A stretch of DNA of 22,935 bases from positions 1-22,935 of the IMG/VR virus record IMGVR_UViG_3300030380_001472. One strand, 5' to 3'. Position numbers and translations under genes: made by a program. Below are positions 7,905 through 22,751 of this stretch, piece by piece; the stretch's first letter is position 1, and each line of letters starts with the position of its first letter. The notes under the pieces are model-generated. The model saw only the letters and a program-made list of their open reading frames with translations, was not told the origin of the DNA and ran no database searches. The DNA is from a virus.

Positions 7905-8067
7905 TCAAAAACCACGCTCTTCTTGTTGCTTCTTCTTGTGTATCTAAAGTATACGAACTATTAAGTTGTTGAATTAAATCTTCAAGCTGTCTTATTAGCT
8001 CTGCTGACTGTTGAGCATCATACTCAGGTCTAGGATCTGGAAATCTTGTTAATGTTAATTTTGCCAT
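7897..8067 (-). CDS. Small helical conserved protein (56 aa)
   Basis: A short frame from ATG at 8067 to TGA at 7899-7897. It begins MAKLTLTRFPDPRPEYDAQQ, followed by a single predicted helix (AELIRQLEDLIQQLNSSY) and ends TRRAWFLNG. It overlaps the oxygenase gene upstream by 13 nt and the 118-aa gene downstream by 8 nt, the same tight coupling as neighbouring genes. The Asp-Pro-Arg-Pro-Glu-Tyr opening and terminal Trp-Phe are features I associate with a recurrent tiny protein in marine phage tail clusters. Function unknown. It could form a small coiled-coil assembly with a neighbour. Confidence 0.72.
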   Translation of the reverse strand: MAKLTLTRFPDPRPEYDAQQSAELIRQLEDLIQQLNSSYTLDTQEEATRRAWFLNG

Positions 8068-8723
8068 TTATCAAAAAAATATACAACATTGTATCGCCAA
8101 TTTCCATTTGAATATTCCTTATGATTATCAATATAACCGCCGTGAGGAATATCCCCATCAAAAATCACACATCTATTGAACTTAGATTGAATTATATGTT
8201 TTTTAATATTTTGTTCATCTATGTCTATTTTAATGTCTTCATATTCTTGTTCTCCACCAGAGGTTTTATAATTAGGTAATTTTTCATAAAGAGCTGTTCC
8301 TCCACTACATGTTTTATCCATATACACAAGAATATTTTGTGATGGGTCTTGATGAGGTACAAACTGATATTTTTGTTCAGGAGGATTTATCCACGTAAAT
8401 ATATTTGTAGCAATAGTCTCACAATGATGATTATCGAGTTTAAGTAAAGATTTTAAATAGTCAGTAGTTTTGTTTTCATTCTCGAAACCATTTTCTTGTA
8501 AAGATATCCAAGTTCTACAATCAAAATAATCTTTAAAGTTACGTCCATCTTTTTTAATTTTCCAATTAGGAACCCAAGATTCTTTTAACATGTCATAAAT
8601 ATCATCAGCTCTTTTGTAAAAATTATCTATAACAATGTATTTGTAAGGACCAATATATTTTTCTTGTGCTAGTAAGTTGTCGTTAATCTCAAATAGATGA
8701 TGATGAATATAAGGTGTTGTCAC
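8055..8723 (-). CDS. 2-oxoglutarate/Fe(II) oxygenase-like protein, DUF6445 type (222 aa)
   Basis: The double-stranded beta-helix iron site is readable: HQD at 124-126 (FVPHQDPSQN), a second His at 194 in CVIFDGDIPHGG, and an Arg at 210 (NWRYNVVYFF) placed to bind 2-oxoglutarate. Between them GGTALYE is the usual turn before the core strand. N-terminal IVIDNFYKRADDIYDML matches the leading helix of the family. The layout resembles DUF6445-type oxygenases; the substrate is unknown. The start is GTG in a GTGA overlap with the upstream oxygenase gene, and no in-frame ATG occurs until residue 45, so GTG is the best start. It is one of five oxygenase-like genes within 5.5 kb. Hydroxylation of a virion or host-surface molecule is inference. 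Confidence 0.8.
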   Translation of the reverse strand: MTTPYIHHHLFEINDNLLAQEKYIGPYKYIVIDNFYKRADDIYDMLKESWVPNWKIKKDGRNFKDYFDCRTWISLQENGFENENKTTDYLKSLLKLDNHHCETIATNIFTWINPPEQKYQFVPHQDPSQNILVYMDKTCSGGTALYEKLPNYKTSGGEQEYEDIKIDIDEQNIKKHIIQSKFNRCVIFDGDIPHGGYIDNHKEYSNGNWRYNVVYFFDKWQN

Positions 8724-9253
8724 AGTATAGATATATTTGCTGATAAAACTATTCTACTTTTATCTTTGTTTGGCTTTACTTCGTGAGGAACATAGCTTGG
8801 AAATAAAACCATTTTGTTTTTAGCAGGTGATATATTCATTTCAGGACCTTCACAATAAGGGTGCCCAGGTTGATAAAAAGTTGTTGAAGTAGAATCGTCA
8901 CTACATTGTATATAGTATATCAAGGAATGTTCATGTATTTCTCTTCCATGTGCATGAAGTCCATGATGATGACCTTCTGCATAACATTGAATCCATGATC
9001 TAGTAATTTTAAAATCATTTTTATTTAATATTTGTTTTGTATACATTGTAAGATATTGTTTTAAATGATTATAAAAATCATTTAATTGTTCAGATTTATC
9101 AAATATATTTTTACAATCATAAAAAGTGGTAAGCATATCCTCTTTGTCAAAAGAATAATTCTTTATAAAAGAAAGTGTTGAGTCTAGGTTAAACTCGGTT
9201 TGTATATCGTAAATTGTTGTTTGAAATATATTTCTGTTTACTTGTATTTCCAA
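8720..9253 (-). CDS. 2OG-Fe(II) oxygenase-like protein, 2OG-FeII_Oxy_5 (PF13759) type (177 aa)
   Basis: This carries the pattern of the PF13759 group: SWIQCYAEGHHHGLHAHG with HxH at 100-102, then HSLIYYIQC, a distal His at 157 in LFPSYVPHEV, and Arg 167 in KSRIVLSANI for 2-oxoglutarate. Length matches the family. The start appears to be TTG at 9253, directly after the stop of the 608-aa gene. The first in-frame ATG is residue 40 and would cut into the conserved N-terminal part. The gene overlaps the next oxygenase by 4 nt. The group is common in cyanophages and other marine phages, but substrates are not established. It differs in sequence from the other four oxygenases here, so it is not a recent duplicate. 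Confidence 0.82.
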   Translation of the reverse strand: MEIQVNRNIFQTTIYDIQTEFNLDSTLSFIKNYSFDKEDMLTTFYDCKNIFDKSEQLNDFYNHLKQYLTMYTKQILNKNDFKITRSWIQCYAEGHHHGLHAHGREIHEHSLIYYIQCSDDSTSTTFYQPGHPYCEGPEMNISPAKNKMVLFPSYVPHEVKPNKDKSRIVLSANISIL

Positions 9254-11080
9254 TTATCTTCTTCCATCTGGTTGTATGTCAAAACGTTGTGTTCCTAATC
9301 TCCAAGCTGTGCCTGTAGTATTTGAAACTAGGTTGACTGTAAATTCTCTACCTCTACCTCTTAAACTCACAAAGTCTGTGGTATCTGAGAAGCTTGTAGT
9401 TTTAGTTACACTAATACTATTGTTTGGATAATTCTTAAATTCAAGTTTTGCATTTAATACACCTGCTTGATTTTCAACGTCAGGAATAATTTTAGATACA
9501 AAAGCAAATTCGTCGCCTTGAGCTATTTGTACTACTCCTGATTTAACAAAAGCAGTAATTGCCTCTCCGTCAGCATCATTTCCTGTTTCGTGTAAAAACA
9601 TTTGTGTAGCTCCATCTGTAAGACCTAATATGACCTCGTTGTTTGCCGTGGTCGATGGTAAGTAGTCTGATGCCACAGGGTTATCAAAAACTTCTCTATC
9701 AATCCATGTTGTTCTGTCAAGAGTTCCTGTCCACCAAGTTTGTTCTAAATAATTATAAGCTACTATCGCATTTATCTCGTTAGAGCCTGTTCTAGGATAA
9801 AACCACATAATCTCATTGAATTCACCATTGTGCCCTGCAAAAGCGTTTTCAGAACCTGTTACATTAATATTGTCAAATACAAACTGTTCCACAGTGCACG
9901 GTAATTTTTTAACTGAACCATCAAATAAGAAGAAAGAATCTTGTGACATCCAATAGCTTATACCATTAATGTCTATACCTGCGTGCATACCTATTATGCC
10001 ACAATTCTGACCTAATTGTCTTAAACCAAAAGTAAATGGTGGACCAATAAATTGTAGCCCATGAAGAGATGTGTCTGTCCAAACAAGTATCTGACCTCTT
10101 GATCTTTCAGCGGCCACGATTCGTGATCCGTCGGCAATTCTTAAAGAGCCCGCAGTATTTTCTGCTGTTGGTTGATAAGTATTTATATCTTCTTGACTAG
10201 AAAATCTAATCAATAAATCATCTTGGCTGTTAGGTGTTGCAATAGTTTTCTCAGTACCCATAAACAGTAAGTGTCTGTCTGGAGTTGAAACTAAACTTAT
10301 TCTTGATGCTGTTGGTGCGCTTGCTATAGCTGTTGCTCTTGTTGATACACCTGTTGAAGGCTTCCACTCAAAAGCTCCACCATTTAAAACAGTGGCAACT
10401 AAATTTTCACCGAAGTTATCTAAAGACCATTGTCTTGCTTCTAGAGTAACATTAGATGTGGATCTTGGCGTGTTCCATGTTGATATACCATAAGTATCTG
10501 TACCCCAACCAAAAGCAGGAACTGAAAATTCAGGACCTAAATTAAGTTGATAGTTCATGTTACCAGTGCCTCCACCTGCAGCGGTAGAACCTGAAGCAGT
10601 GCCTGTATGAGTTACCACATAAGCAGCAGTATTGACGACAGAGGTAACTTCGAACTCCTTATTCATATCTAATCCATCAATGGCTGAAAAAGAATCAAAA
10701 GTCACAAAACTACCTTGAACACATCCATGACCTGCATCAGTGACCACCACAGAAGTAGTAGCGTTTGTGGTAAAAGGATTTGTTCTTGCTTGAGTTCTTC
10801 TAATTGGTGTTATGTCGTAAGCTAAACCTTCTTGTATTAAGTAAAGTTTTCTGTCAGTGCCTATAGCGTTCTGTCTTACTCCGTCTAAAGATACCCATGC
10901 GTGTTGGTCTCTAGCGGCTCCTACTAATGTAGTAGAAATAAACTTTTGCCATCCCTTGATTTTTTGTGCAGATCCTTGGAAAAAGCGAACCATATCACCA
11001 TCAGTCCACTTACCCTGACCTGTATAATCAGTAACTTCTTTGTTAATACCGGGTGCGGGTCTAAAATTTACTAGGGGCAT
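9254..11080 (-). CDS. P22 gp10-like tail/stabilisation protein (608 aa)
   Basis: A large beta-rich protein. It opens with LVNFRPAPGINKEVTDYTGQ and has VRFFQGSAQKIKGWQKF, as in many marine phage tail proteins. The centre has ILVWTDTSLHGLQFIGPP and GISYWMSQDSFFLFDG, repeating blade-like segments. The C terminus (residues about 555-608) contains DFVSLRGRGREFTVNLV and WRLGTQRFDI. The domain order (N-terminal site-listing strand, propeller-like middle, Arg-rich beta C terminus) resembles the P22 gp10 'phage stabilisation' type that plugs the tail after DNA packaging. Assignment rests on recalled similarity. The start is ATG with no clear Shine-Dalgarno. It is flanked by oxygenase genes on both sides, which is unusual for such a core tail gene. 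Confidence 0.8.
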   Translation of the reverse strand: MPLVNFRPAPGINKEVTDYTGQGKWTDGDMVRFFQGSAQKIKGWQKFISTTLVGAARDQHAWVSLDGVRQNAIGTDRKLYLIQEGLAYDITPIRRTQARTNPFTTNATTSVVVTDAGHGCVQGSFVTFDSFSAIDGLDMNKEFEVTSVVNTAAYVVTHTGTASGSTAAGGGTGNMNYQLNLGPEFSVPAFGWGTDTYGISTWNTPRSTSNVTLEARQWSLDNFGENLVATVLNGGAFEWKPSTGVSTRATAIASAPTASRISLVSTPDRHLLFMGTEKTIATPNSQDDLLIRFSSQEDINTYQPTAENTAGSLRIADGSRIVAAERSRGQILVWTDTSLHGLQFIGPPFTFGLRQLGQNCGIIGMHAGIDINGISYWMSQDSFFLFDGSVKKLPCTVEQFVFDNINVTGSENAFAGHNGEFNEIMWFYPRTGSNEINAIVAYNYLEQTWWTGTLDRTTWIDREVFDNPVASDYLPSTTANNEVILGLTDGATQMFLHETGNDADGEAITAFVKSGVVQIAQGDEFAFVSKIIPDVENQAGVLNAKLEFKNYPNNSISVTKTTSFSDTTDFVSLRGRGREFTVNLVSNTTGTAWRLGTQRFDIQPDGRR

Positions 11081-11092
11081 TGTGCGAATATA

Positions 11093-11560
11093 CTATAAAA
11101 TTGGTACAAAATCCATAGCGACTGTTATTCTATCGCTTTTTACTTTATCAACACCATGTAAGGCGTCTGATTTGAACAATATAGCAAACCCTTCTTTTTC
11201 TTCAACATGTTGTTTTTTGTCATTAATCATAAAATATAAACAATTATTGATAGATGGTTTGATTATAATAATAAGAGAATATTCTTCGGGTTGATGATGA
11301 TGAAGTTTTGTCCAATTGAATTTTTGATAGTAGTTAACCCACCAAGATGATTTTTTCCATTTATGACTATTATTTACTTTAGGCAATATATTCTCAATAA
11401 CAAAATCACCAATATCATGTAAAAATTGATAGTTGGGATTAAATCCTGATGTGAGTGATTTAACGTTTTTTAAGTCTTTTTCCCAATTGTCTTTTTCTTG
11501 ATAAACAAAATTAGAGATATTTACACAATCATTATGTGGTATCTCAAAGGTTATAAACAC
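11093..11560 (-). CDS. 2OG-Fe(II) oxygenase-like protein, short HxH type (155 aa)
   Basis: A short protein with the iron-site pattern H87-x-H89 (FNWTKLHHHQPEEYSLII), a distal His at 135 in LFKSDALHGVDKV, and Arg 144 in KSDRITVAMDF that would bind 2-oxoglutarate. The Trp-rich stretch WWVNYYQKFNWTKLH matches the strand leading into the HxH of PF13759-like proteins. It is shorter than its neighbours but all core elements are present. The start is GTG at 11560, 4 nt after the glycosyltransferase stop; no alternative ATG lies near. It stands between the 608-aa tail gene and the glycosyltransferase. Replacement of the usual HxD by HxH is a known variant in phage members, but activity is not proven by sequence. 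Confidence 0.75.
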   Translation of the reverse strand: MFITFEIPHNDCVNISNFVYQEKDNWEKDLKNVKSLTSGFNPNYQFLHDIGDFVIENILPKVNNSHKWKKSSWWVNYYQKFNWTKLHHHQPEEYSLIIIIKPSINNCLYFMINDKKQHVEEKEGFAILFKSDALHGVDKVKSDRITVAMDFVPIL

Positions 11561-11564
11561 GAGA

Positions 11565-12383
11565 TTATTTATTTGCTTTTTGCACGAGAGAACCTACATG
11601 GCCTTTAAAGGCTCTATTACCAAAGTGTGTTAATGGCATAGCTAAGTCTGCCCATATCTCACCACCACACTCTTGCCATAATCTTGAGAAGTAATAATCT
11701 TCAGAGAGATATCTAATTTGTGTTTTGCCATCTCTTGTTTTCGTTTCATAAGGACCTACAGCGAACAGATCATAACAATTGTCTGACTTGTAACTTTGTC
11801 CATTTACAATTTGATCTGACTCATATTTTCTTTCAGGAAATTTTTTCATCATAGTCCTAAACACCTCTCTCTTAACAAGCATCATTCCTGTAGCAGCTTC
11901 TTGTACAGGAAAAAAACCTTGCTCCCCTTTTAAATTAAGAGGATCATCAAAGTTTACATTATACCCCAAACACCTAGCTTCAATTTCATCTGGTTGTGCA
12001 TTAGGGTTTTCTTCTAAAATTCCTTTTATCTTTTCTATATAAAGATGTTTTCTAGGGTAAATTCCACATGCAACATCTTTGTCTGCACATATTAATCTTT
12101 CAATATTTTGCCAATTAAATCCTATGTCAGCATCTATAAATAATAAATGAGTAGCTGCAAAATCAGTTTGATCCATCATCATAGAAACAATGGTATTTCT
12201 AGCTCTAGTAATTAAACTTTCATTACCCATAGTCTGTATTCTTAAATGTACATTATTAGTTGCAGTCCAAGATTGAAGCTCTAGCAAACCATGCATTGTG
12301 CTTTCAGTAAGCATGCCACCGTACATTGGCATACCTAAAAATATTTTTAAATTCTTATCTTTTATTTCTTCTGGTTTAATCAT
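11565..12383 (-). CDS. Glycosyltransferase-like protein, GT-A fold with DxD (272 aa)
   Basis: The protein starts IFLGMPMYGGMLTESTMHGL, a typical first strand of GT-A transferases. Conserved NESLITRARNTIV (54-66) and the DxD motif D84-A-D86 in LLFIDADIGFNW follow, which in this fold binds the metal and sugar nucleotide. VACGIYPRKH and AATGMMLVKREVF build the core. Late elements LSEDYYFSRLW (227-235) and LTHFGNRAF (251-259) fit the catalytic acid and closing His seen in many phage and bacterial relatives. Donor and acceptor are unknown. The ATG lies in a TAATG overlap behind a strong AAGGAG, unlike the neighbouring oxygenase genes. Its place between oxygenase genes and close to tail fibre genes suggests modification of virion proteins or host surface glycans; this is inference. 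Confidence 0.85.
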   Translation of the reverse strand: MIKPEEIKDKNLKIFLGMPMYGGMLTESTMHGLLELQSWTATNNVHLRIQTMGNESLITRARNTIVSMMMDQTDFAATHLLFIDADIGFNWQNIERLICADKDVACGIYPRKHLYIEKIKGILEENPNAQPDEIEARCLGYNVNFDDPLNLKGEQGFFPVQEAATGMMLVKREVFRTMMKKFPERKYESDQIVNGQSYKSDNCYDLFAVGPYETKTRDGKTQIRYLSEDYYFSRLWQECGGEIWADLAMPLTHFGNRAFKGHVGSLVQKANK

Positions 12384-12997
12384 TATTTTCTCCTTGACGA
12401 TTCACTGTAACCTATGTTTGGTCTACTATCATATGCCCATTCAGGATAATGTGGCCCTTCCATATCAATATAATGAAGGAAGCATTGCGCACAATGATCT
12501 CCCTGTAGTTTGTTTCTCCAATGCACCAACTCTTCCCCCATGTAAATAATACCATCTCCAGGGTTCATAGTTATTTCTGCTTCCATAGAATAACCATTCT
12601 CTATATCTTCACCTTTATTTAATTTTCCAAAATAAATTGGCCAAGGTTCTCCACCAAAATTAATAGTTACTGAATATTCACAAGACTCTCTATCTCTATG
12701 AGGCTTTAGAGTTTCACCTCTAGTATAAACTCTTGAATAAGAGTATGTAGGACATAAGTTCTTTTTTGTAATTTCAGATATAGTAGGTAATAAAATACCT
12801 GACAAAGTTTCTGTGGTAATGTCAGAATAACAGTATCTTATATATTTAATTGCACTATCTTCCTTGGAATTAGAAAATTCAAGGTTGGTACATGCTTTGA
12901 TTATTAAATAATTATAAATAAAACTTGATATTTTTGGATCTACTAAATTTGGAACGTGTACATAATCATTTTTTTTAAAATATTCTATTCTGTCCAT
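12383..12997 (-). CDS. 2OG-Fe(II) oxygenase-like protein, HxD type (204 aa)
   Basis: The iron site reads H100-R-D102 in LKPHRDRESCEYSVTINFGG and distal His 159 in GIIYMGEELVHWRN, with NPGDGIIYMG just before it as in known 2OG oxygenases. The later AQCFLHYIDMEGPH segment is the usual last core strand in this marine phage group. The N terminus (FKKNDYVHVPNLVDP) has the classic 'Gly/Asp-Tyr-Val-x-x-x-Asn-Leu' opening of phytanoyl-CoA dioxygenase-like proteins. The ATG is at 12997, 13 nt inside the end of the upstream oxygenase gene, with GGTGA upstream. It is the only one of the five oxygenase genes with an ATG start. Substrate unknown. Confidence 0.82.
   Translation of the reverse strand: MDRIEYFKKNDYVHVPNLVDPKISSFIYNYLIIKACTNLEFSNSKEDSAIKYIRYCYSDITTETLSGILLPTISEITKKNLCPTYSYSRVYTRGETLKPHRDRESCEYSVTINFGGEPWPIYFGKLNKGEDIENGYSMEAEITMNPGDGIIYMGEELVHWRNKLQGDHCAQCFLHYIDMEGPHYPEWAYDSRPNIGYSESSRRK
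12390..12395 (-). promoter_or_regulatory. Strong Shine-Dalgarno of the glycosyltransferase gene
   Basis: AAGGAG is formed by the last codons of the upstream oxygenase gene, 6 nt before ATG at 12383. It contrasts with the weak or absent sites before most oxygenase genes in this cluster. Confidence 0.7.
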
Positions 12998-13563
12998 ATC
13001 ACCAAAACTTTCCTAGTCCCTTTTGTTAAAGGTGTTACGCTATGAGGAAACATAAAATTAGAGGGAAAACAAACAACATCTCCACGATCTATTTTGATAC
13101 CCTTCTGTGAATTTTGAACGAATAACTCTCCTCCTTCATATTCCTTAGGATCGTTTAATCCAATTAATAAGGTAAGTGCCCTTGGAGCATCTTTAAAATA
13201 ATCAGTGTGATAATCATAATGACCACCATTTTTGCCTTCATAATATAAAAATTCGAAATAGTTATTGTTAGAAAAATACCATGATGAAATCTTTTCTCGA
13301 TATTCATTTTCAATAGTGCTTGTAAATCTTTTTAAATCATTGAATATAATTCTTCTACTTATTGAATTACCAATATCTTTTTCATATAGACTAGTGCTTT
13401 TTACTGTTCTAATTTTTTCGTTAAGCCCAGATGCTGTGGAAGCTTTTTCCCAATCATCAACGTTCCTGTATATCTCTTCATTAATTAAATTTACTAAAGA
13501 TGGTTTCATAGCATCTTTAATAATCAGAGAATACTGAAGAACTTCTTTTTTGAGGTTAAGCAC
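12985..13563 (-). CDS. Prolyl-4-hydroxylase-like 2OG-Fe(II) oxygenase (192 aa)
   Basis: This is the clearest prolyl-hydroxylase-like member. YDYHTDYFKD holds H119-x-D121; LTLLIGLNDPKEYEGGELFV is the core with the Gly-Gly-Glu-Leu turn; CFPSNFMFPHSVTPLTKGTR contains His 174 and the basic residues (K181, R184) that bind 2-oxoglutarate; VLVIW closes the fold. This matches the 2OG-FeII_Oxy_3 pattern. Known relatives hydroxylate proline in proteins, though substrates of phage members are mostly unknown. The start is GTG at 13563, overlapping the upstream stop by 8 nt. The first in-frame ATG is residue 19. It is the oxygenase closest to the fibre genes, so fibre proteins are the simplest candidate substrates (inference). 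Confidence 0.85.
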   Translation of the reverse strand: MLNLKKEVLQYSLIIKDAMKPSLVNLINEEIYRNVDDWEKASTASGLNEKIRTVKSTSLYEKDIGNSISRRIIFNDLKRFTSTIENEYREKISSWYFSNNNYFEFLYYEGKNGGHYDYHTDYFKDAPRALTLLIGLNDPKEYEGGELFVQNSQKGIKIDRGDVVCFPSNFMFPHSVTPLTKGTRKVLVIWTE

Positions 13564-14478: not shown

Positions 14479-15522
14479 TTAATCCTTAGAACATGCAATG
14501 ACATTTGCAAATTTAATATCCATGTCTGGAACTGTCAAATCTGTCGTTGCCGAAACACTACCTGATAAAGATACACTTCCTGAAATTGGGTGACTATGCG
14601 TTCCGCCTCCACCCGTGGAACCAGTGCTTCCGCCACCTCCTGATGGTCGAGGTGGATCTCCACCTGGTTGACCACTACGTCCACTCATGTTATTTGGGTG
14701 ACTGTGAGAAGGTATCGTTGGTGTGGAAAGAGTTGTATCTCCGACAGCTAAAGTTCCTGTTGAAGCACCTGCACTTGAGGCATCATCAAAAGTAATAGGG
14801 CCAGAGGCAGTTGATTTTGTACCTGTAAACACTGTAGCAAAGGCATCGGAACCTGCTAATCCACCACCAGAACCTGTAACAACTTGAAGTGTTGTTGTAT
14901 TTATCGTAGCAGAAGTATTTTGTGTCCAACCACTAGGAGCAGATCCTTGAAAAAATAAAGCAGTAGAACCTGAGGGTATGCTTGATACTCCTGTTAAAGC
15001 AGAGCCATCTCCAGAATATGCAGTAGCATTAATTGTACCGTTTGCAGCAGTCATTACTGTACTGTCAACAGTCAAAGAATTTAGAATACTTAAATCACCT
15101 AATGAGTTTGCAAACAAATCAATCATATCATTGCTAGCATTATTATAGGCAATGGTGTGAGATCCTTGTGTAATAACTAACGCATTAGCTGTATGGCCTG
15201 TGGCACAAACACTTAAAGTTTGAGATCCTGTAGTGTTATTAAAAAAAATATAGTTTGATTCTACCGCAGGAATAAAAACTTTTATGTCACCTGTTAAGGC
15301 TCCTGTGAACTCTATAACTTTATTAGACGCTTCTGCGGTGGGACTTGCATCGGCTGTTGTAAGTGTAACATCAGCAGAACCTGCTACGGACTTTGATAAA
15401 TATCCTGCTGTAAAGGCATCAACCACTTCAAGATTATTATTTGTGTTTGTTCCCCAAGTTCCTGAGTTAGCTCCTGTTTGTTGAAGTTCTAATTTATATC
15501 TATCTGAATAAGTGCTTGTCAT
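14479..15522 (-). CDS. Tail fibre/collar protein, paralog 3 of 3 (347 aa)
   Basis: Residues 1-150 form a conserved anchor domain (TYSDRYKLELQQTGANSGTW, then EASNKVIEFTGALTGDI and VESNYIFFNNTTGSQTL). Residues about 185-235 form a tail-collar-like domain (APSGWT, GGGLAGSDAFATVF). The tip starts at IPSHSHP (HSH 273-275), then a variable Gly/Pro/Ser-rich loop to GGGGTHSHP (HSH 309-311), and ends in MDIKFANVIACSKD. HSH pairs in T4 gp12/gp37-like fibres bind metal along the trimer axis, so a trimeric fibre tip is likely. Cell-surface binding is inference from domain type. It follows paralog 2 by 2 nt and uses an AAGGA site made by that gene's last codons. Confidence 0.88.
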   Translation of the reverse strand: MTSTYSDRYKLELQQTGANSGTWGTNTNNNLEVVDAFTAGYLSKSVAGSADVTLTTADASPTAEASNKVIEFTGALTGDIKVFIPAVESNYIFFNNTTGSQTLSVCATGHTANALVITQGSHTIAYNNASNDMIDLFANSLGDLSILNSLTVDSTVMTAANGTINATAYSGDGSALTGVSSIPSGSTALFFQGSAPSGWTQNTSATINTTTLQVVTGSGGGLAGSDAFATVFTGTKSTASGPITFDDASSAGASTGTLAVGDTTLSTPTIPSHSHPNNMSGRSGQPGGDPPRPSGGGGSTGSTGGGGTHSHPISGSVSLSGSVSATTDLTVPDMDIKFANVIACSKD

Positions 15523-15524
15523 TT

Positions 15525-16565
15525 TTAATCCTTTGTCGCTATTATACTATCTGCAAATTTTAAATTCATCGCAGGAACACTCGCAGCCACGGTAGAAGAA
15601 AGACTACCACTTAGAGATATACCTGACAAGGTGTGACTGTGAGAGCCACCACCACCTGCACCACCTGTGCTTGATCCACTTGAACCTGTTGCTATTGGAG
15701 AACCACGACCTCTTGAGGGTTGTGGACCACCTGCACTAGTTCTAGGATGACTATGAGAGGGTATTTGAGGGGTACTCAAAGTTGTTGCTCCTGCAGTTAA
15801 ACTACTAGTATCTACTGTTAAACTACCTGTGCTAATTGGAACACTCGCCTTTGAAGCTGACTTTGATCCTGTAAACACTGTGCTAAAAGTATCAGAACCA
15901 CCTGTGCCACCACCTGTGCCATTAACTACTTGTAAACAACATTCTGTTAAAGTAGCAGAGGTATCTGTCGTAAAACCTGTCGGAGCTGAAGTTTGTACAA
16001 AAGTTGCTTTGGTTCCTGCGGGAAACTCTTGCACTCCAGTCAAACCTCCACCATCTCCTTTTAAGGTTGTTGCTGAAACTGTGCCATTTGCAAAAAGATT
16101 AATGTTATTTCCAATCGCAATCTTACCTTTAGCTGAAACGTTACCGAAAGAATTAGCAAATAAATCTACCATTCTATTACCCTTACAATACATAATCGTA
16201 TGGGCACCTTGCACTATTGCTACTCCATTAGCTGTATGTCCTGTAGGAGCAACAGTCAAAGTTTGTGATCCCGTTGTGTTGTTAAAGAAAATATAATTAG
16301 ACTCAACGGCAGGCACAAAAACTTTAATATCGCCTGTTAATGCTCCTGTAAATTCAATTACTTTGTTAGATGCTTCAGCATTAGGATCTGAGTTGTTTGT
16401 GCTTAAAGTTATATCTGCTGATCCTGCCACACTTTTAGCTAAAAAACCTGCATTAAAAGCATCAATAACTTTTAAATTTGTATTTGTATTATCTCCCCAT
16501 GTGCTTGCATTAGCACCTGTTGCCATCAATTCTAATTTTAATCTATCTGAATAAGTTGAGGCCAT
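15525..16565 (-). CDS. Tail fibre/collar protein, paralog 2 of 3 (346 aa)
   Basis: It shares the architecture of its neighbours: anchor TYSDRLKLELMATGANASTW, EASNKVIEFTGALTGDI, collar-like APTGFT and GGTGGSDTFSTVF, tip HSH at 271-273 and 309-311, end MNLKFADSIIATKD. The segment between the HSH motifs is Pro/Arg/Gly/Ser-rich and unlike the other two copies. It also has an unusual MYCKGN and a Cys pair (ECCLQ, 209-210) that the others lack. The start is ATG at 16565, one nt after the paralog 1 stop, behind AAGGA with 5 nt spacing. Probably a receptor-binding or accessory fibre; whether it makes homo- or hetero-trimers with its paralogs cannot be read here. Confidence 0.88.
   Translation of the reverse strand: MASTYSDRLKLELMATGANASTWGDNTNTNLKVIDAFNAGFLAKSVAGSADITLSTNNSDPNAEASNKVIEFTGALTGDIKVFVPAVESNYIFFNNTTGSQTLTVAPTGHTANGVAIVQGAHTIMYCKGNRMVDLFANSFGNVSAKGKIAIGNNINLFANGTVSATTLKGDGGGLTGVQEFPAGTKATFVQTSAPTGFTTDTSATLTECCLQVVNGTGGGTGGSDTFSTVFTGSKSASKASVPISTGSLTVDTSSLTAGATTLSTPQIPSHSHPRTSAGGPQPSRGRGSPIATGSSGSSTGGAGGGGSHSHTLSGISLSGSLSSTVAASVPAMNLKFADSIIATKD
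15529..15533 (-). promoter_or_regulatory. Shine-Dalgarno of fibre paralog 3, made by the last codons of paralog 2
   Basis: The final Lys-Asp-stop codons of paralog 2 read AAGGATTAA; AAGGA lies 6 nt before the ATG of the next fibre gene. The site is thus part of a conserved protein end. Confidence 0.7.
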
Positions 16566-16566
16566 A

Positions 16567-17598
16567 TTAATCCTTACTACAAACTATTACGTTTGCCCTT
16601 TTTATATCCATACCTGGAACAGAAAGAGCAATTGAAGGTGCTCCCATTGTTCCTGTTAAATTTCCTGATCCACTGACAGGGTGAGTGTGAGAGCCACCAC
16701 CTCCTGTAGATCCAGTTGAACCACCTGGTCCAATTCTTGACTGAGGACCACTATCAACATTAGGACCACCACTTATTGATTGAGAAGGGTGAGAGTGAGA
16801 TGGAATTTCAGGTGTTGACAAAGTCACATCACTTGCAGATCCCCCTTCGATTGTTAAAGGAGATATATCAACTGTACCCGCTCCTGAGGTAGCTTTTGAT
16901 CCTGAAAAAACTGAATTAAATAAATCTGAACCACCTGTTCCTGCAGTACCAGAAGTTATAACTCTTAGTGTTGCATTGGTTAAAGCCGCTGCAGTATTTT
17001 GAGTCCAACCTGTTGGTGCGGACGCTTGTAAAAAAACCATTTGTGTATCTGCGGGTAAGGTGCTTACTCCTGTTAGATCTCCACCTGCACCAGTAAATGA
17101 AGAGGCAACAACCTGTCCATTTGATTTTACTTGTACAGATCCACCAACCGCACCCGCACCTTTAAAACTGACAGTGCCTAATGAAGATGCAAACAAGTCA
17201 ACAACTTTGTTACTTGCATTGTTGTAAGCAATAGTGTGCGCTCCTTGTTGTATTGTAATTGAGTTTGCAGTATGACCTGTTGGCGCTACCTTTAAAGTAT
17301 GTGAGCCAGAGGTATTGTTAAAAAATATATAATTATTTTCTACAGCGGGAATGAATACAATAATATCTCCTGTTAAAGCACCAGTAAATTCTATAACTTT
17401 ATTAGCAGCTTCTGCCGAAGGATCAGCATCTCCTGTTGTTAAAGTTATGTTAGCGGAACCTGCTACAGATTTAGCAAGAAAGCCTCCACCGAATGTATCA
17501 ATAGTATTAAGATTGTTATTTGTTCTAGTGCCCCAAGTGTTGGCGTTTGCGCCACTTGCCATGAGTTCTAGTTTTAATCTATCTGAATATGTACTCAT
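16567..17598 (-). CDS. Tail fibre/collar protein, paralog 1 of 3 (343 aa)
   Basis: The first translated of three tandem fibres. Anchor TYSDRLKLELMASGANANTW, then AANKVIEFTGALTGDI and VENNYIFFNNTSGSHTL; collar-like APTGWT and GTGGSDLFNSVF; tip HSH at 268-270 and HTH at 304-306; end MDIKRANVIVCSKD. The variable loop between the histidine motifs (SQSISGGPNVDSGPQSRIGP) differs fully from the other copies. The ATG at 17598 has only a distant AAGG, 13 nt upstream. The Gly-rich segment recalls polyglycine adhesin tips of T-even-like phages, but no true collagen Gly-X-Y run is present. Likely a virion adhesin; receptor unknown. Confidence 0.88.
   Translation of the reverse strand: MSTYSDRLKLELMASGANANTWGTRTNNNLNTIDTFGGGFLAKSVAGSANITLTTGDADPSAEAANKVIEFTGALTGDIIVFIPAVENNYIFFNNTSGSHTLKVAPTGHTANSITIQQGAHTIAYNNASNKVVDLFASSLGTVSFKGAGAVGGSVQVKSNGQVVASSFTGAGGDLTGVSTLPADTQMVFLQASAPTGWTQNTAAALTNATLRVITSGTAGTGGSDLFNSVFSGSKATSGAGTVDISPLTIEGGSASDVTLSTPEIPSHSHPSQSISGGPNVDSGPQSRIGPGGSTGSTGGGGSHTHPVSGSGNLTGTMGAPSIALSVPGMDIKRANVIVCSKD
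16571..16575 (-). promoter_or_regulatory. Shine-Dalgarno of fibre paralog 2, made by the last codons of paralog 1
   Basis: AAGGATTAA at the end of paralog 1 places AAGGA 5 nt before the ATG of paralog 2. It has the same sequence and reading as the site at the next junction. Confidence 0.7.
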
Positions 17599-20110: not shown

Positions 20111-20776
20111 TTAAGTCCTAAAAAAATTTTGAGGCACTAAATGCACTGAAGTTCTTTGACCATCTTCTGTTAATGCTCTTTGTAATTCGTCTTCATAATA
20201 AAGTTTCATTTCTTGAACTCTTCCGGGATTATGTTTTTGAGATAGATAAAAAGATAAACCAGAAACCATGCAAGGCAAAAATCTGTAAGGAGCGTCAGGA
20301 GTAGCTGTATATTTTCCTGCATCTTCAATCCTTGCAACATAATAATAATTAATTTGTGTGTCTGTCACATTAGGAGTTAGATATAAATTAATTTCAACGT
20401 TAGATAAATTTCTTCTGACATAATATTGAGAAGGTGTTCCTTGTGATGATTTATTTGGTATTGCTTGATACTCTGATCTTGAAATTTTAGTCATAGTAGT
20501 ATCTGTACTGCCATTTCTAAAAACTGCTTCTAAGACATCACTTGTGTTTGCAGGTGCAGTATAAGTTGTTGTCCCTGCAGTTAAATTTTGAGTATGATTA
20601 GTAACTTTCCAAAGATGAACTCCTCTATTGCCCCATTCAGATAACAACAGATTTAAACTTCTTCTAGCTGATTTAATATCATAGCCTGTTCTGACTTGTC
20701 TACCAATCCTCTCGAAAGATTCTTCGATAATCTCGTCAATATCTAAATTAAAATCTGTTGTACCTGATGTAGCCAT
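20111..20776 (-). CDS. P22 gp4-like head-tail adaptor protein (221 aa)
   Basis: The N-terminal helices (DIDEIIEESFERIGRQVRTG, then ARRSLNLLLSEWGNRGVHLW) match the start of the gp4/gp6-like adaptor group, in which a helix ending in Glu-Trp packs against the portal ring. A beta domain follows (TTYTAPANTSDVLEAVFRNG and VEINLYLTPN), then a C-terminal helix pair (FLPCMVSGLSFYLSQKHNPG and MKLYYEDELQRALTEDGQ). The protein should form the ring below the portal that prepares tail attachment. ATG overlaps the stop of the 49-aa repeat gene (TAATG). Function is by recalled similarity and gene order; I consider it likely. Confidence 0.82.
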   Translation of the reverse strand: MATSGTTDFNLDIDEIIEESFERIGRQVRTGYDIKSARRSLNLLLSEWGNRGVHLWKVTNHTQNLTAGTTTYTAPANTSDVLEAVFRNGSTDTTMTKISRSEYQAIPNKSSQGTPSQYYVRRNLSNVEINLYLTPNVTDTQINYYYVARIEDAGKYTATPDAPYRFLPCMVSGLSFYLSQKHNPGRVQEMKLYYEDELQRALTEDGQRTSVHLVPQNFFRT

Positions 20777-20925
20777 TATTTTTTCTTCATCATCATTCCG
20801 CCGCCACGCTTCTTCATGACTTGCTTCTTCTTGGCCATCATTCCGCCGCCAGCTTTTTTCTTAACTTGCTTCTTCTTGGCCATTCCTCCGCCTCTTTTTT
20901 TGATTACTTGCTTTTTTTTCATCAT
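20776..20925 (-). CDS. Tiny highly basic repeat protein, K/G repeats (49 aa)
   Basis: ATG at 20925 (a second ATG follows directly) to TAA at 20778-20776. The protein consists of three units: MMKKKQVIKKRGGG, MAKKKQVKKKAGGG and MMAKKKQVMKKRGGG, then MMMKKK. Nearly half of all residues are Lys or Arg and there is no acidic residue. AGAGG lies about 9 nt upstream, formed by the end of the 191-aa gene, and the stop overlaps the adaptor gene as TAATG, so translation is well supported. Such a peptide would bind nucleic acid or an acidic partner; DNA condensation or a head-linked role is inference. It is shorter than common gene-calling limits. Confidence 0.75.
   Translation of the reverse strand: MMKKKQVIKKRGGGMAKKKQVKKKAGGGMMAKKKQVMKKRGGGMMMKKK
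20797..20925 (-). repeat. Three tandem 42-45 bp in-gene repeats
   Basis: Units at 20925-20884 (42 bp), 20883-20842 (42 bp) and 20841-20797 (45 bp) share AAGAAGAAGCAAGT and GGCGGCGGAATG blocks. Units 2 and 3 are the closest at DNA level. They are richer in GC than the surroundings and encode the K/G peptide, so expansion by slippage or unequal recombination is plausible. Confidence 0.75.
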
Positions 20926-21744: not shown

Positions 21745-22018
21745 GTTGTTTCCTTATACTATTTTTACCGCTTTTGAATATAGAAGCCACTTTATTTTTA
21801 CCCATAACTTTAGCTCTTTGTTCTCCTACAGTGAGGATTTGAATTTTGCGTGCGTAACTTTTGTTGACTTTTTTAACTTTCGAAACAGTTTTGCGTGCAT
21901 CCGTTGGAGTAGCAAACTTAATACCGACAGTATCTTTTGGATTCTCATCTGTATAAAGTCTTCTACCAGACCCTTTTGGTTTTTTACCTGTTCCTACTTT
22001 GGGGTCTTTTGTTTTCAT
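21725..22018 (-). CDS. Small basic conserved protein, KPKGSGRRLYTDENP type (97 aa)
   Basis: It opens MKTKDPKVGTGKKPKGSGRR, then LYTDENPKDTVGIKF, an element I recognise from small proteins of cyanophages and other marine phages. The middle helix (VNKSYARKIQILTVGEQRA) and basic end (SGKNSIRKQHGKKRT) give a strongly positive protein. ATG overlaps the upstream stop (TAATG) and the gene has no Shine-Dalgarno of its own, so it is probably translated by coupling. Likely a nucleic acid- or capsid-linked small protein; function unknown. Confidence 0.8.
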   Translation of the reverse strand: MKTKDPKVGTGKKPKGSGRRLYTDENPKDTVGIKFATPTDARKTVSKVKKVNKSYARKIQILTVGEQRAKVMGKNKVASIFKSGKNSIRKQHGKKRT

Positions 22019-22281
22019 TACAGACGTTTAGTTACTTTTCTTCTGTTCTCCATGACGCCACCACAACCTTTTGCGATACCACCTTGCTTAAAACTAGAAA
22101 CTTTTTTTCTTTCTTGTGATACTTGATTTATCATACCACCATCAGCTTTTTTATTTTTTTTACCACCTGGAGTAACTTTTCCAGAACATACTGCGCCTGC
22201 ATACATATTAGCATAAGCGCTAGGGTAGACTTTAAATTTCCGCTTTGCGGCGGCTTTTCCTTTTGCGCATAGTTTTGCCAT
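22018..22281 (-). CDS. Small basic conserved protein, KLCAKGKAAAKRKFKVYPSA type (87 aa)
   Basis: The start MAKLCAKGKAAAKRKFKVYP followed by SAYANMYAGAVCSGKVTPGG is the mark of a short family found in marine phages and some giant viruses. The C-terminal part carries KKADGGMINQVSQ and KQGGIAKGCGGVMENRRKVT, a Gly/Lys/Cys tail often seen separately at the ends of marine phage proteins, so the protein looks like two joined modules. Function unknown. ATG at 22281 follows the Cys-rich gene by 8 nt, with GAGGAG in the end of that gene. Together with the 97-, 91- and 49-aa genes it forms a group of small basic proteins. Confidence 0.8.
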   Translation of the reverse strand: MAKLCAKGKAAAKRKFKVYPSAYANMYAGAVCSGKVTPGGKKNKKADGGMINQVSQERKKVSSFKQGGIAKGCGGVMENRRKVTKRL

Positions 22282-22289
22282 TTTTCTTT

Positions 22290-22430
22290 TTACTCCTCAC
22301 TCCCGGTTTCGTTATTTGTTGTCTCATCTGAGCTCGGCTGATCGTCATGCACGCACCTCGGACACTCGCACATACATGGCGTTCCTAAACTGCAGTGACA
22401 AGAACATCCACATATCTGACATTGTTTCAT
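22290..22430 (-). CDS. Cys-rich metallothionein-like small protein (46 aa)
   Basis: ATG at 22430 to TAA at 22292-22290. The N-terminal half MKQCQICGCSCHCSLGTPCM and CECPRC holds nine Cys at residues 4, 7, 9, 11, 13, 19, 21, 23 and 26. They form CxxCxCxCxC and CxCxCxxC clusters with one His, while the C-terminal 20 residues are acidic and polar (DDQPSSDETTNNETGSEE). This density and CxC spacing are those of metallothioneins binding several Zn, Cu or Cd ions as thiolate clusters. Zn-binding is more likely if the His takes part. The ATG overlaps the upstream micro-ORF stop as TAATG. Metal binding is inferred from spacing only; an alternative is a disulphide-rich peptide, less likely in cytoplasm. 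Confidence 0.72.
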   Translation of the reverse strand: MKQCQICGCSCHCSLGTPCMCECPRCVHDDQPSSDETTNNETGSEE

Positions 22431-22489
22431 TAATGAATTGTACCAATTTCAAAATCAGGTTCAAATACAATATCTGACTCCTCTTCCAT
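22430..22489 (-). CDS. Acidic micro-ORF (19 aa), possible coupling peptide
   Basis: ATG at 22489 to TAA at 22432-22430 encodes MEEESDIVFEPDFEIGTIH. Both ends are TAATG overlaps: its ATG shares a base with the stop of the membrane protein gene, and its stop shares a base with the ATG of the Cys-rich gene. It fills the otherwise unused gap of 58 nt exactly. It may be a true micro-protein or only a device that carries ribosomes to the next start. No Shine-Dalgarno of its own is seen. Confidence 0.45.
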   Translation of the reverse strand: MEEESDIVFEPDFEIGTIH

Positions 22490-22719
22490 TAAAATTCTTT
22501 GTAGTTCTTTATCAAGAACTCTTCCATCCACGACATCTTATCGTTTACAGATTGAATCTGTGTTTTAATCACTGCTATATCTTGTTGCATTTCTGCAACA
22601 CTATCGGCTTTCTTTTCAACTGCATTTAAACGTTCTGACCACATACCCCATGTCATAGCTAATGTGGCTAATAATACCAAATATGGTAGAACTGATTTAA
22701 CGTCTATCTTAAACGACAT
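22489..22719 (-). CDS. Single-helix membrane protein with coiled coil (76 aa)
   Basis: I choose ATG at 22719, with GCGGA 6 nt upstream; an in-frame TTG two codons earlier is possible. Residues 1-10 (MSFKIDVKSV) are followed by a transmembrane segment LPYLVLLATLAMTWGMW (11-27). A coiled coil follows (NAVEKKADSVAEMQQDIAVI and KTQIQSVNDKMSWMEEFLI). The layout fits small phage membrane proteins of the holin or inner-membrane spanin kind, but no lysis gene is near and the match is by shape only. The start lies inside the 15-aa CxC micro-ORF in another frame, so its translation may depend on it. The stop overlaps the 19-aa micro-ORF. Confidence 0.75.
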   Translation of the reverse strand: MSFKIDVKSVLPYLVLLATLAMTWGMWSERLNAVEKKADSVAEMQQDIAVIKTQIQSVNDKMSWMEEFLIKNYKEF

Positions 22720-22751
22720 ATACAATCCGCATCTGTTTTACAATCACACAT
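22704..22751 (-). CDS. Cys micro-ORF (15 aa) overlapping the membrane protein start
   Basis: ATG at 22751 to TAG at 22706-22704 encodes MCDCKTDADCICRLR with two CxC pairs. It has one of the best Shine-Dalgarno sites of the window (GAGGAG, 6 nt spacing), whereas the membrane protein gene whose ATG (22719) it overlaps out of frame has only GCGGA. The last 16 nt are shared. It may be a leader or coupling ORF, or a tiny metal-binding peptide related in style to the 46-aa Cys-rich protein. Confidence 0.45.
   Translation of the reverse strand: MCDCKTDADCICRLR

What the first reader, a model, noticed from the sequence alone, without database searches (positions are those of the whole stretch)
22290..22430. 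Metallothionein-like 46-aa protein with nine Cys in CxC clusters
Nine Cys within the first 26 residues, in CxxCxCxCxC and CxCxCxxC patterns, followed by an acidic tail. This is below most gene-calling limits and lies in a coupled gene chain. A phage metallothionein could buffer Zn or Cu for virion assembly, supply the zinc-ribbon and HSH fibre proteins of the same operon, or sequester metals during infection.
Basis: partly seen in the sequence, partly recalled or inferred. Interest (0 to 1): 0.66.

Follow-up and report, generated by a model that had tools for sequence, protein, structure and literature searches.

The report
Conserved metallothionein-like gene in marine phages
A tiny gene that standard databases miss makes a 46-residue, cysteine-packed protein that is conserved across many uncultured marine phages and has exactly the number of metal-gripping residues found in a bacterial zinc metallothionein, so these phages probably carry their own metal-binding peptide, although no metal binding has been shown.

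Summary
The ORF is real; it lies on the MINUS strand (22430→22290), with a start coupled to the gene before it. None of 400 shuffles of the window gives such an ORF. It belongs to an unannotated family: 99 close relatives in IMG/VR, a second branch (type B) of 148, and one unannotated divergent copy in the cultured SAR11 phage HTVC023P. No member of a 34-sequence alignment has a convincing match in Pfam, NCBIfam, PHROGs or PDB. The core is C-x2-C-x-[C/H]-x-C-H-C-x(3-5)-C-x(1,2)-C-x-C-x2-C-x-H: 9 Cys + 2 His in the window, 8 Cys + 3 His in type B, 11 Cys/His sites in 43 of 44 distinct cores. One ligand site swaps Cys for His, synonymous sites are diverged, and dN/dS is 0.11-0.16. Eleven is the ligand count of the Zn4Cys9His2 cluster of SmtA, though no sequence relationship to the bacterial metallothionein family was found. 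Best reading: a phage metallothionein-like Zn(II) (possibly Cu/Cd) cluster peptide encoded among the virion genes. Metal binding is inferred from conservation, not shown; the physiological role is open.

The parts
22290..22430 (-). Metallothionein-like gene, 46 aa, 9 Cys + 2 conserved His (ATG at 22430, TAA ending at 22290)
   Evidence: family; selection; start coupling
22347..22421 (-). Ligand core C4..H28: C-x2-C-x-C-x-C-H-C-x5-C-x-C-x-C-x2-C-x-H (ligands C4,C7,C9,C11,H12,C13,C19,C21,C23,C26,H28)
22293..22346 (-). Variable acidic tail (DDQPSSDETTNNETGSEE), weakly constrained (dN/dS 0.56); its last codons GAGGAG look like the Shine-Dalgarno of the next gene
22430..22489 (-). Mini-ORF of 19 aa, MEEESDIVFEPDFEIGTIH, joined by TAATG overlaps to the TM gene before it and the Cys gene after it; conserved in about ten variants, absent in other members
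22489..22725 (-). Upstream small membrane protein with predicted coiled coil, 78 aa (only weak spanin-like PHROG matches); upstream partner in the window-type neighbourhood
22018..22281 (-). Downstream 87-aa basic protein (phrog_27331, 'YPSAYAN' motif), used as synteny anchor

Best explanation
A translated phage gene for a metallothionein-like peptide. Shown: the ORF is under purifying selection, 11 Cys/His positions are retained in nearly all relatives found, and the residues between them drift. Inferred: the 9 Cys and 2 His wrap a Zn(II) (or Cd/Cu) thiolate-imidazole cluster of three to four metal ions that itself makes the fold, as in SmtA (Zn4Cys9His2). Inferred with low certainty: it is made with the virion genes and buffers metal in the dying host cell, for example Zn set free as host proteins or ribosomes are dismantled, rather than being a part of the virion.
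For: Family with conserved spacing in 99 viral relatives plus 148 type-B relatives. In 44 distinct cores: eight Cys and His12 in all, site 3 Cys 39/His 5, last site His 42/Cys 1/Asn 1; 43 of 44 keep 11 C/H ligands. Cys-to-His swaps at a ligand site fit metal coordination, not disulfides. dN/dS 0.156 (5-loop) and 0.108 (3-loop); ligand codons vary only silently, non-ligand core 0.38, tail 0.56. Cores are 40% Cys with about 0.5% aromatics. Cys number rises to 13 in relatives with an added MCEGCDxLCxKCES module. 45 of 46 distinct start contexts overlap or nearly abut the stop of an upstream ORF. AF2: moderate confidence in the core and no helix or strand of 3+ residues, as expected of a metal-organised fold, though weak evidence. 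SmtA has a Zn4Cys9His2 core (PMC10119931); the Pseudomonas protein Zn3Cys9His (PMC7387436).
Against: No metal binding measured. No sequence match to a metallothionein family or structure. The invariance counts are partly built in by the search patterns (the Cys sites and CHC); the final His and the non-ligand sites were not. M20 and E22 inside CxCxC are also conserved, so structure or a partner contact beyond the ligands is possible. Type B has a conserved NALDEFWKR helix that looks like a docking motif, which is unlike a metallothionein.
Confidence: 0.6

Rival explanations
1. A structural zinc mini-domain: the 11 ligands hold two or three Zn ions that rigidify a small adaptor which binds a phage or host protein (membrane/lysis partner, RNA polymerase, ribosome). 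The metal is structural, not buffered.
For: Type-B relatives keep a conserved C-terminal ALDEFWKR helix (pN 0.09 at pS 0.78; helix 30-45 at low confidence). M20 and E22 between ligands are conserved in type A. Type A often follows directly a small membrane or coiled-coil gene in both neighbourhoods.
Against: In type A, the window's own branch, the tail is weakly constrained (0.56) and aromatic residues are almost absent; five CxC steps are typical of metal clusters and unusual in single-site zinc fingers (own knowledge).
Confidence: 0.25
2. A Cys-rich redox peptide or Fe-S carrier: thiols buffer oxidants or bind an iron-sulfur cluster, possibly serving the phage's 2OG-Fe(II) oxygenases.
For: The same window carries 2OG-Fe(II) oxygenase genes, a known trait of HTVC023P-type phages (PMC9599517).
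Against: Kept His ligands and Cys-to-His exchange fit Zn/Cd coordination better than disulfides. A link with oxygenase genes across the family was not tested.
Confidence: 0.08
3. A spurious ORF: a chance open frame in a gap between late genes.
For: Only 46 aa, no database match for the window protein.
Against: Conserved across about 100 relatives with dN/dS 0.11-0.16 and coupled starts; 0 of 400 shuffles.
Confidence: 0.01

Closest known systems
SmtA/BmtA bacterial metallothioneins (Pfam PF02069 Metallothio_Pro)
   Same: Small, 9 Cys plus His ligands; the SmtA core is Zn4Cys9His2, 11 ligands (PMC10119931), the same count as here; rich in CxC.
   Different: No detectable sequence relationship: PF02069 rings in Synechococcus elongatus as control but not in this record, and no member of the alignment matches it. 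SmtA is 56 aa with a zinc-finger-like part; here all ligands lie within 25 residues.
Pseudomonas metallothioneins (PflQ2MT, Zn3Cys9His)
   Same: Nine Cys with His in the cluster and an intrinsically disordered region (PMC7387436).
   Different: Bacterial chromosomal genes; no profile match.
Eukaryotic metallothionein Metallothi_Euk2 (PF12809)
   Same: One of 34 members gives a weak match, E 0.026, probably from Cys content.
   Different: One member only and weak; no homology claimed.
HTVC023P-type pelagiphages (carrier genomes)
   Same: Share late genes with the window (SU10-like adaptor, YPSAYAN protein, stabilisation protein); HTVC023P has one unannotated divergent member, core at 29077-29175.
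   Different: HTVC027P, 023Pt_psg01 and DSL-LC04 have no match over their whole genomes.

Membership tests
Metallothionein (functional class) | Small and Cys-rich, with CxC/CxxC motifs | tested here: met
   46 aa, 9 Cys, five CxC and two CxxC steps
Metallothionein (functional class) | Few or no aromatic residues | tested here: met
   Cores: about 0.5% aromatic
Metallothionein (functional class) | Ligand positions conserved above other residues | tested here: met
   partly selected by the search pattern, but the final His and the codon contrast were not
Metallothionein (functional class) | Binds several d10 metal ions in a thiolate cluster | not testable with these tools
   Needs purified protein, ICP-MS and native MS
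Bacterial metallothionein PF02069 (SmtA/BmtA) | Match to the family profile | tested here: not met
   No match in 34 members nor in the whole record, with S. elongatus positive as control
Bacterial metallothionein PF02069 (SmtA/BmtA) | Eleven Cys/His ligands as in Zn4Cys9His2 | tested here: met
   9 Cys + 2 His in the window; 43 of 44 cores have 11 C/H; SmtA from PMC10119931
Zinc-finger/zinc-ribbon mini-domain | Match to a known zinc-finger family or fold | tested here: not met
   Pfam, NCBIfam, PDB sequence and Foldseek negative; the fold test is weak because the models are of low confidence
Zinc-finger/zinc-ribbon mini-domain | Conserved partner-binding surface or helix | tested here: inconclusive
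   Present in type B, not seen in the type A tail

The most novel reading that the evidence does not exclude
A virus-specific superfamily of 11-ligand metal-cluster peptides, in several branches that trade Cys for His and gain extra Cys modules or docking helices, used by abundant marine phages to manage host zinc or copper during infection, for instance capturing Zn released as infection strips host ribosomes.
Probability: 0.3. Interest if true: 0.8.

Novelty: new variant of a known kind. Interest (0 to 1): 0.6.

Why it matters
Metallothioneins are described for bacteria and eukaryotes; the literature searched here (open-access PMC only) held no report of one encoded by a phage. If binding is confirmed, trace-metal buffering becomes a phage function in relatives of SAR11 phages, in an ocean where zinc is scarce. 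It also shows a family of genes of about 40-65 codons, conserved in at least two hundred viral contigs, that standard profile libraries do not contain, with one copy left unannotated in a cultured phage, HTVC023P, which can be tested in the laboratory on Pelagibacter HTCC1062.

Tried and rejected
tblastn of the window protein in cultured phages gave nothing; BLAST's low-complexity filter may hide Cys-rich queries, so a profile search of whole records was run as well. A nine-Cys DNA pattern scan of viral contigs was mostly swamped by low-complexity Cys repeats. A search of bacterial and archaeal genomes for type A found none; for type B one partial match at the end of a 40-kb contig in a Flavobacteriales MAG, which may be a phage contig. 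AF2 of types A and B gave low pTM, and Foldseek and VIA found nothing. PDB profile search: only Ms13-1 at E 8.7, taken as chance. Rfam: none. Promoter/terminator scan: no excess over shuffles. The idea that the gene feeds zinc-ribbon or fibre proteins was dropped for lack of any specific linkage. The 'metallothionein' in the Ab31 phage paper appears in a table of the bacterial genome analysis, not as a phage gene.

Full report
Observation. The ORF is real and the stated coordinates are right, but it lies on the minus strand: MKQCQICGCSCHCSLGTPCMCECPRCVHDDQPSSDETTNNETGSEE. Nine Cys fall between residues 4 and 26. The window lies in a virus record of 23,446 bases, GC 36.7%. None of 400 dinucleotide-preserving shuffles produced an open frame with nine Cys in 26 residues.

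Gene reality. Starting from the downstream 87-aa neighbour (phrog_27331), 80 related viral loci were fetched; homologues of the Cys ORF sit upstream of it in several. An alignment of seven recovered 99 relatives in IMG/VR, of which 80 were kept. Among 31 distinct five-loop genes dN/dS is 0.156 in the core and 0.56 in the tail; among 26 three-loop genes it is 0.108 in the core. Ligand codons change only silently (TGT/TGC, CAC/CAT), with a selection caveat because the search pattern itself demanded the Cys. In 45 of 46 distinct contexts the start overlaps or nearly abuts the stop of an upstream ORF of 15 codons or more; three of these contexts are type B. The exception is HTVC023P, where the start codon is uncertain. 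In the window the chain is: TM gene (22489-22725), TAATG, 19-aa mini-ORF (22430-22489), TAATG, Cys gene, whose final codons GAGGAG TAA look like the Shine-Dalgarno of the gene starting at 22281.

Anatomy. Over 44 distinct cores, eight Cys and His12 are invariant; the third site is Cys in 39 and His in 5; the last is His in 42, Cys in 1 and Asn in 1; 43 of 44 keep 11 Cys/His ligands. The loop between the two halves is 3 or 5 residues. Some relatives carry an N-terminal MCEGCDxLCxKCES module, raising the count to 13 Cys. Searching with the His-type members revealed a second branch, type B, with 148 relatives, sequence close to C[RK]NC[ED]H[EG]CHC-x5-CxxCxCxxCEHNALDEFWKR, with 8 Cys + 3 His and near-saturated synonymous change. 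Profile-profile comparison of A and B gives P 1.2e-4, probability 55%: probable but not proven homology, since shared Cys content inflates such scores.

Context. Type A occurs in two main neighbourhoods: capsid ... membrane protein - Cys - YPSAYAN protein - SU10-like adaptor (the window), and portal - HTVC027P gp46-like membrane protein - Cys - about 1 kb - GroES - gp56 - capsid. Type B occurs in still other places, often about 2 kb downstream of the start of the tail stabilisation protein gene. So the gene moves within virion-gene regions and is tied to no single partner. Late timing is inferred from this position only; in HTVC027P the temporal clusters are mosaic (PMC12753301). Of four related phage records searched whole by profile, only HTVC023P has a member (29077-29175, an unannotated ORF whose 5' part may overlap gp44). 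That sequence was itself in the profile, but it had been found beforehand by pattern.

Comparison. No member matches NCBIfam, Pfam or PHROGs beyond noise (best is one member against PF12809 Metallothi_Euk2, E 0.026). PF02069, the SmtA family, rings in Synechococcus elongatus as control and not here. There is no PDB relative by sequence or fold; AF2 confidence in the core is moderate (blocks 73-78, pTM 0.36) with no helix or strand of three or more residues. SmtA holds Zn4Cys9His2 (PMC10119931) and the Pseudomonas protein Zn3Cys9His (PMC7387436). The window peptide has the same 9 Cys + 2 His as SmtA's ligand set. It looks like a metallothionein on the sequence criteria, but it is not a member of any described metallothionein family.

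Mechanism. [quoted passage not shown] What it is for is open. One testable idea: pelagiphage-infected SAR11 cells lose detectable ribosomal RNA (PMC11066056), and bacterial ribosomes carry Zn-binding proteins (own knowledge), so such an infection could set zinc free. HTVC027P shows this effect without having the gene, so the gene is not needed for it. The host of the window's phage is unknown; records with a related stabilisation protein include phages of Pelagibacter, Roseobacter and others.

Verdict. Real, conserved, unannotated, metallothionein-like; metal binding highly plausible (my estimate about 0.85), cluster-type metallothionein function likely (0.6), physiological role unproven.

Noticed in passing
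window 22430-22489 (-): A 19-aa mini-ORF MEEESDIVFEPDFEIGTIH, coupled by TAATG on both sides, conserved at protein level in about ten variants among relatives.
   Followed up: partly
L122:5049-5162, L151:5175-5312, L184:3222-3347, L186:1733-1915, L187:5748-5861: A third Cys/His peptide ('type C'...KLCEIVCKIFGITQCLCDHDCNCK) lies in the same region upstream of the YPSAYAN gene, never together with types A or B in the loci seen.
   Followed up: partly
window 8055-13563 (-): Several 2OG-Fe(II) oxygenase-like genes among the tail genes, a known trait of HTVC023P-type phages.
   Followed up: no
window 14479-17598 (-): Three consecutive similar fibre/collar-like genes of 343-347 aa with IPSHSHP motifs.
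   Followed up: no
window 20776-20925 (-): A 49-aa peptide made of lysine-rich repeats of the type KKKQVxKKxGGGM.
   Followed up: no
L204:2484-2645 (HTVC023P 29014-29175): Divergent family member in a cultured SAR11 phage, not annotated; its 5' part may overlap gp44 (PurM) and its start codon is uncertain.
   Followed up: partly
L360:1-108: Type-B-like tail (CLNCEHNPLDEFWKDLKKS) at the end of a 40-kb contig of a Flavobacteriales MAG, possibly a phage contig.
   Followed up: no
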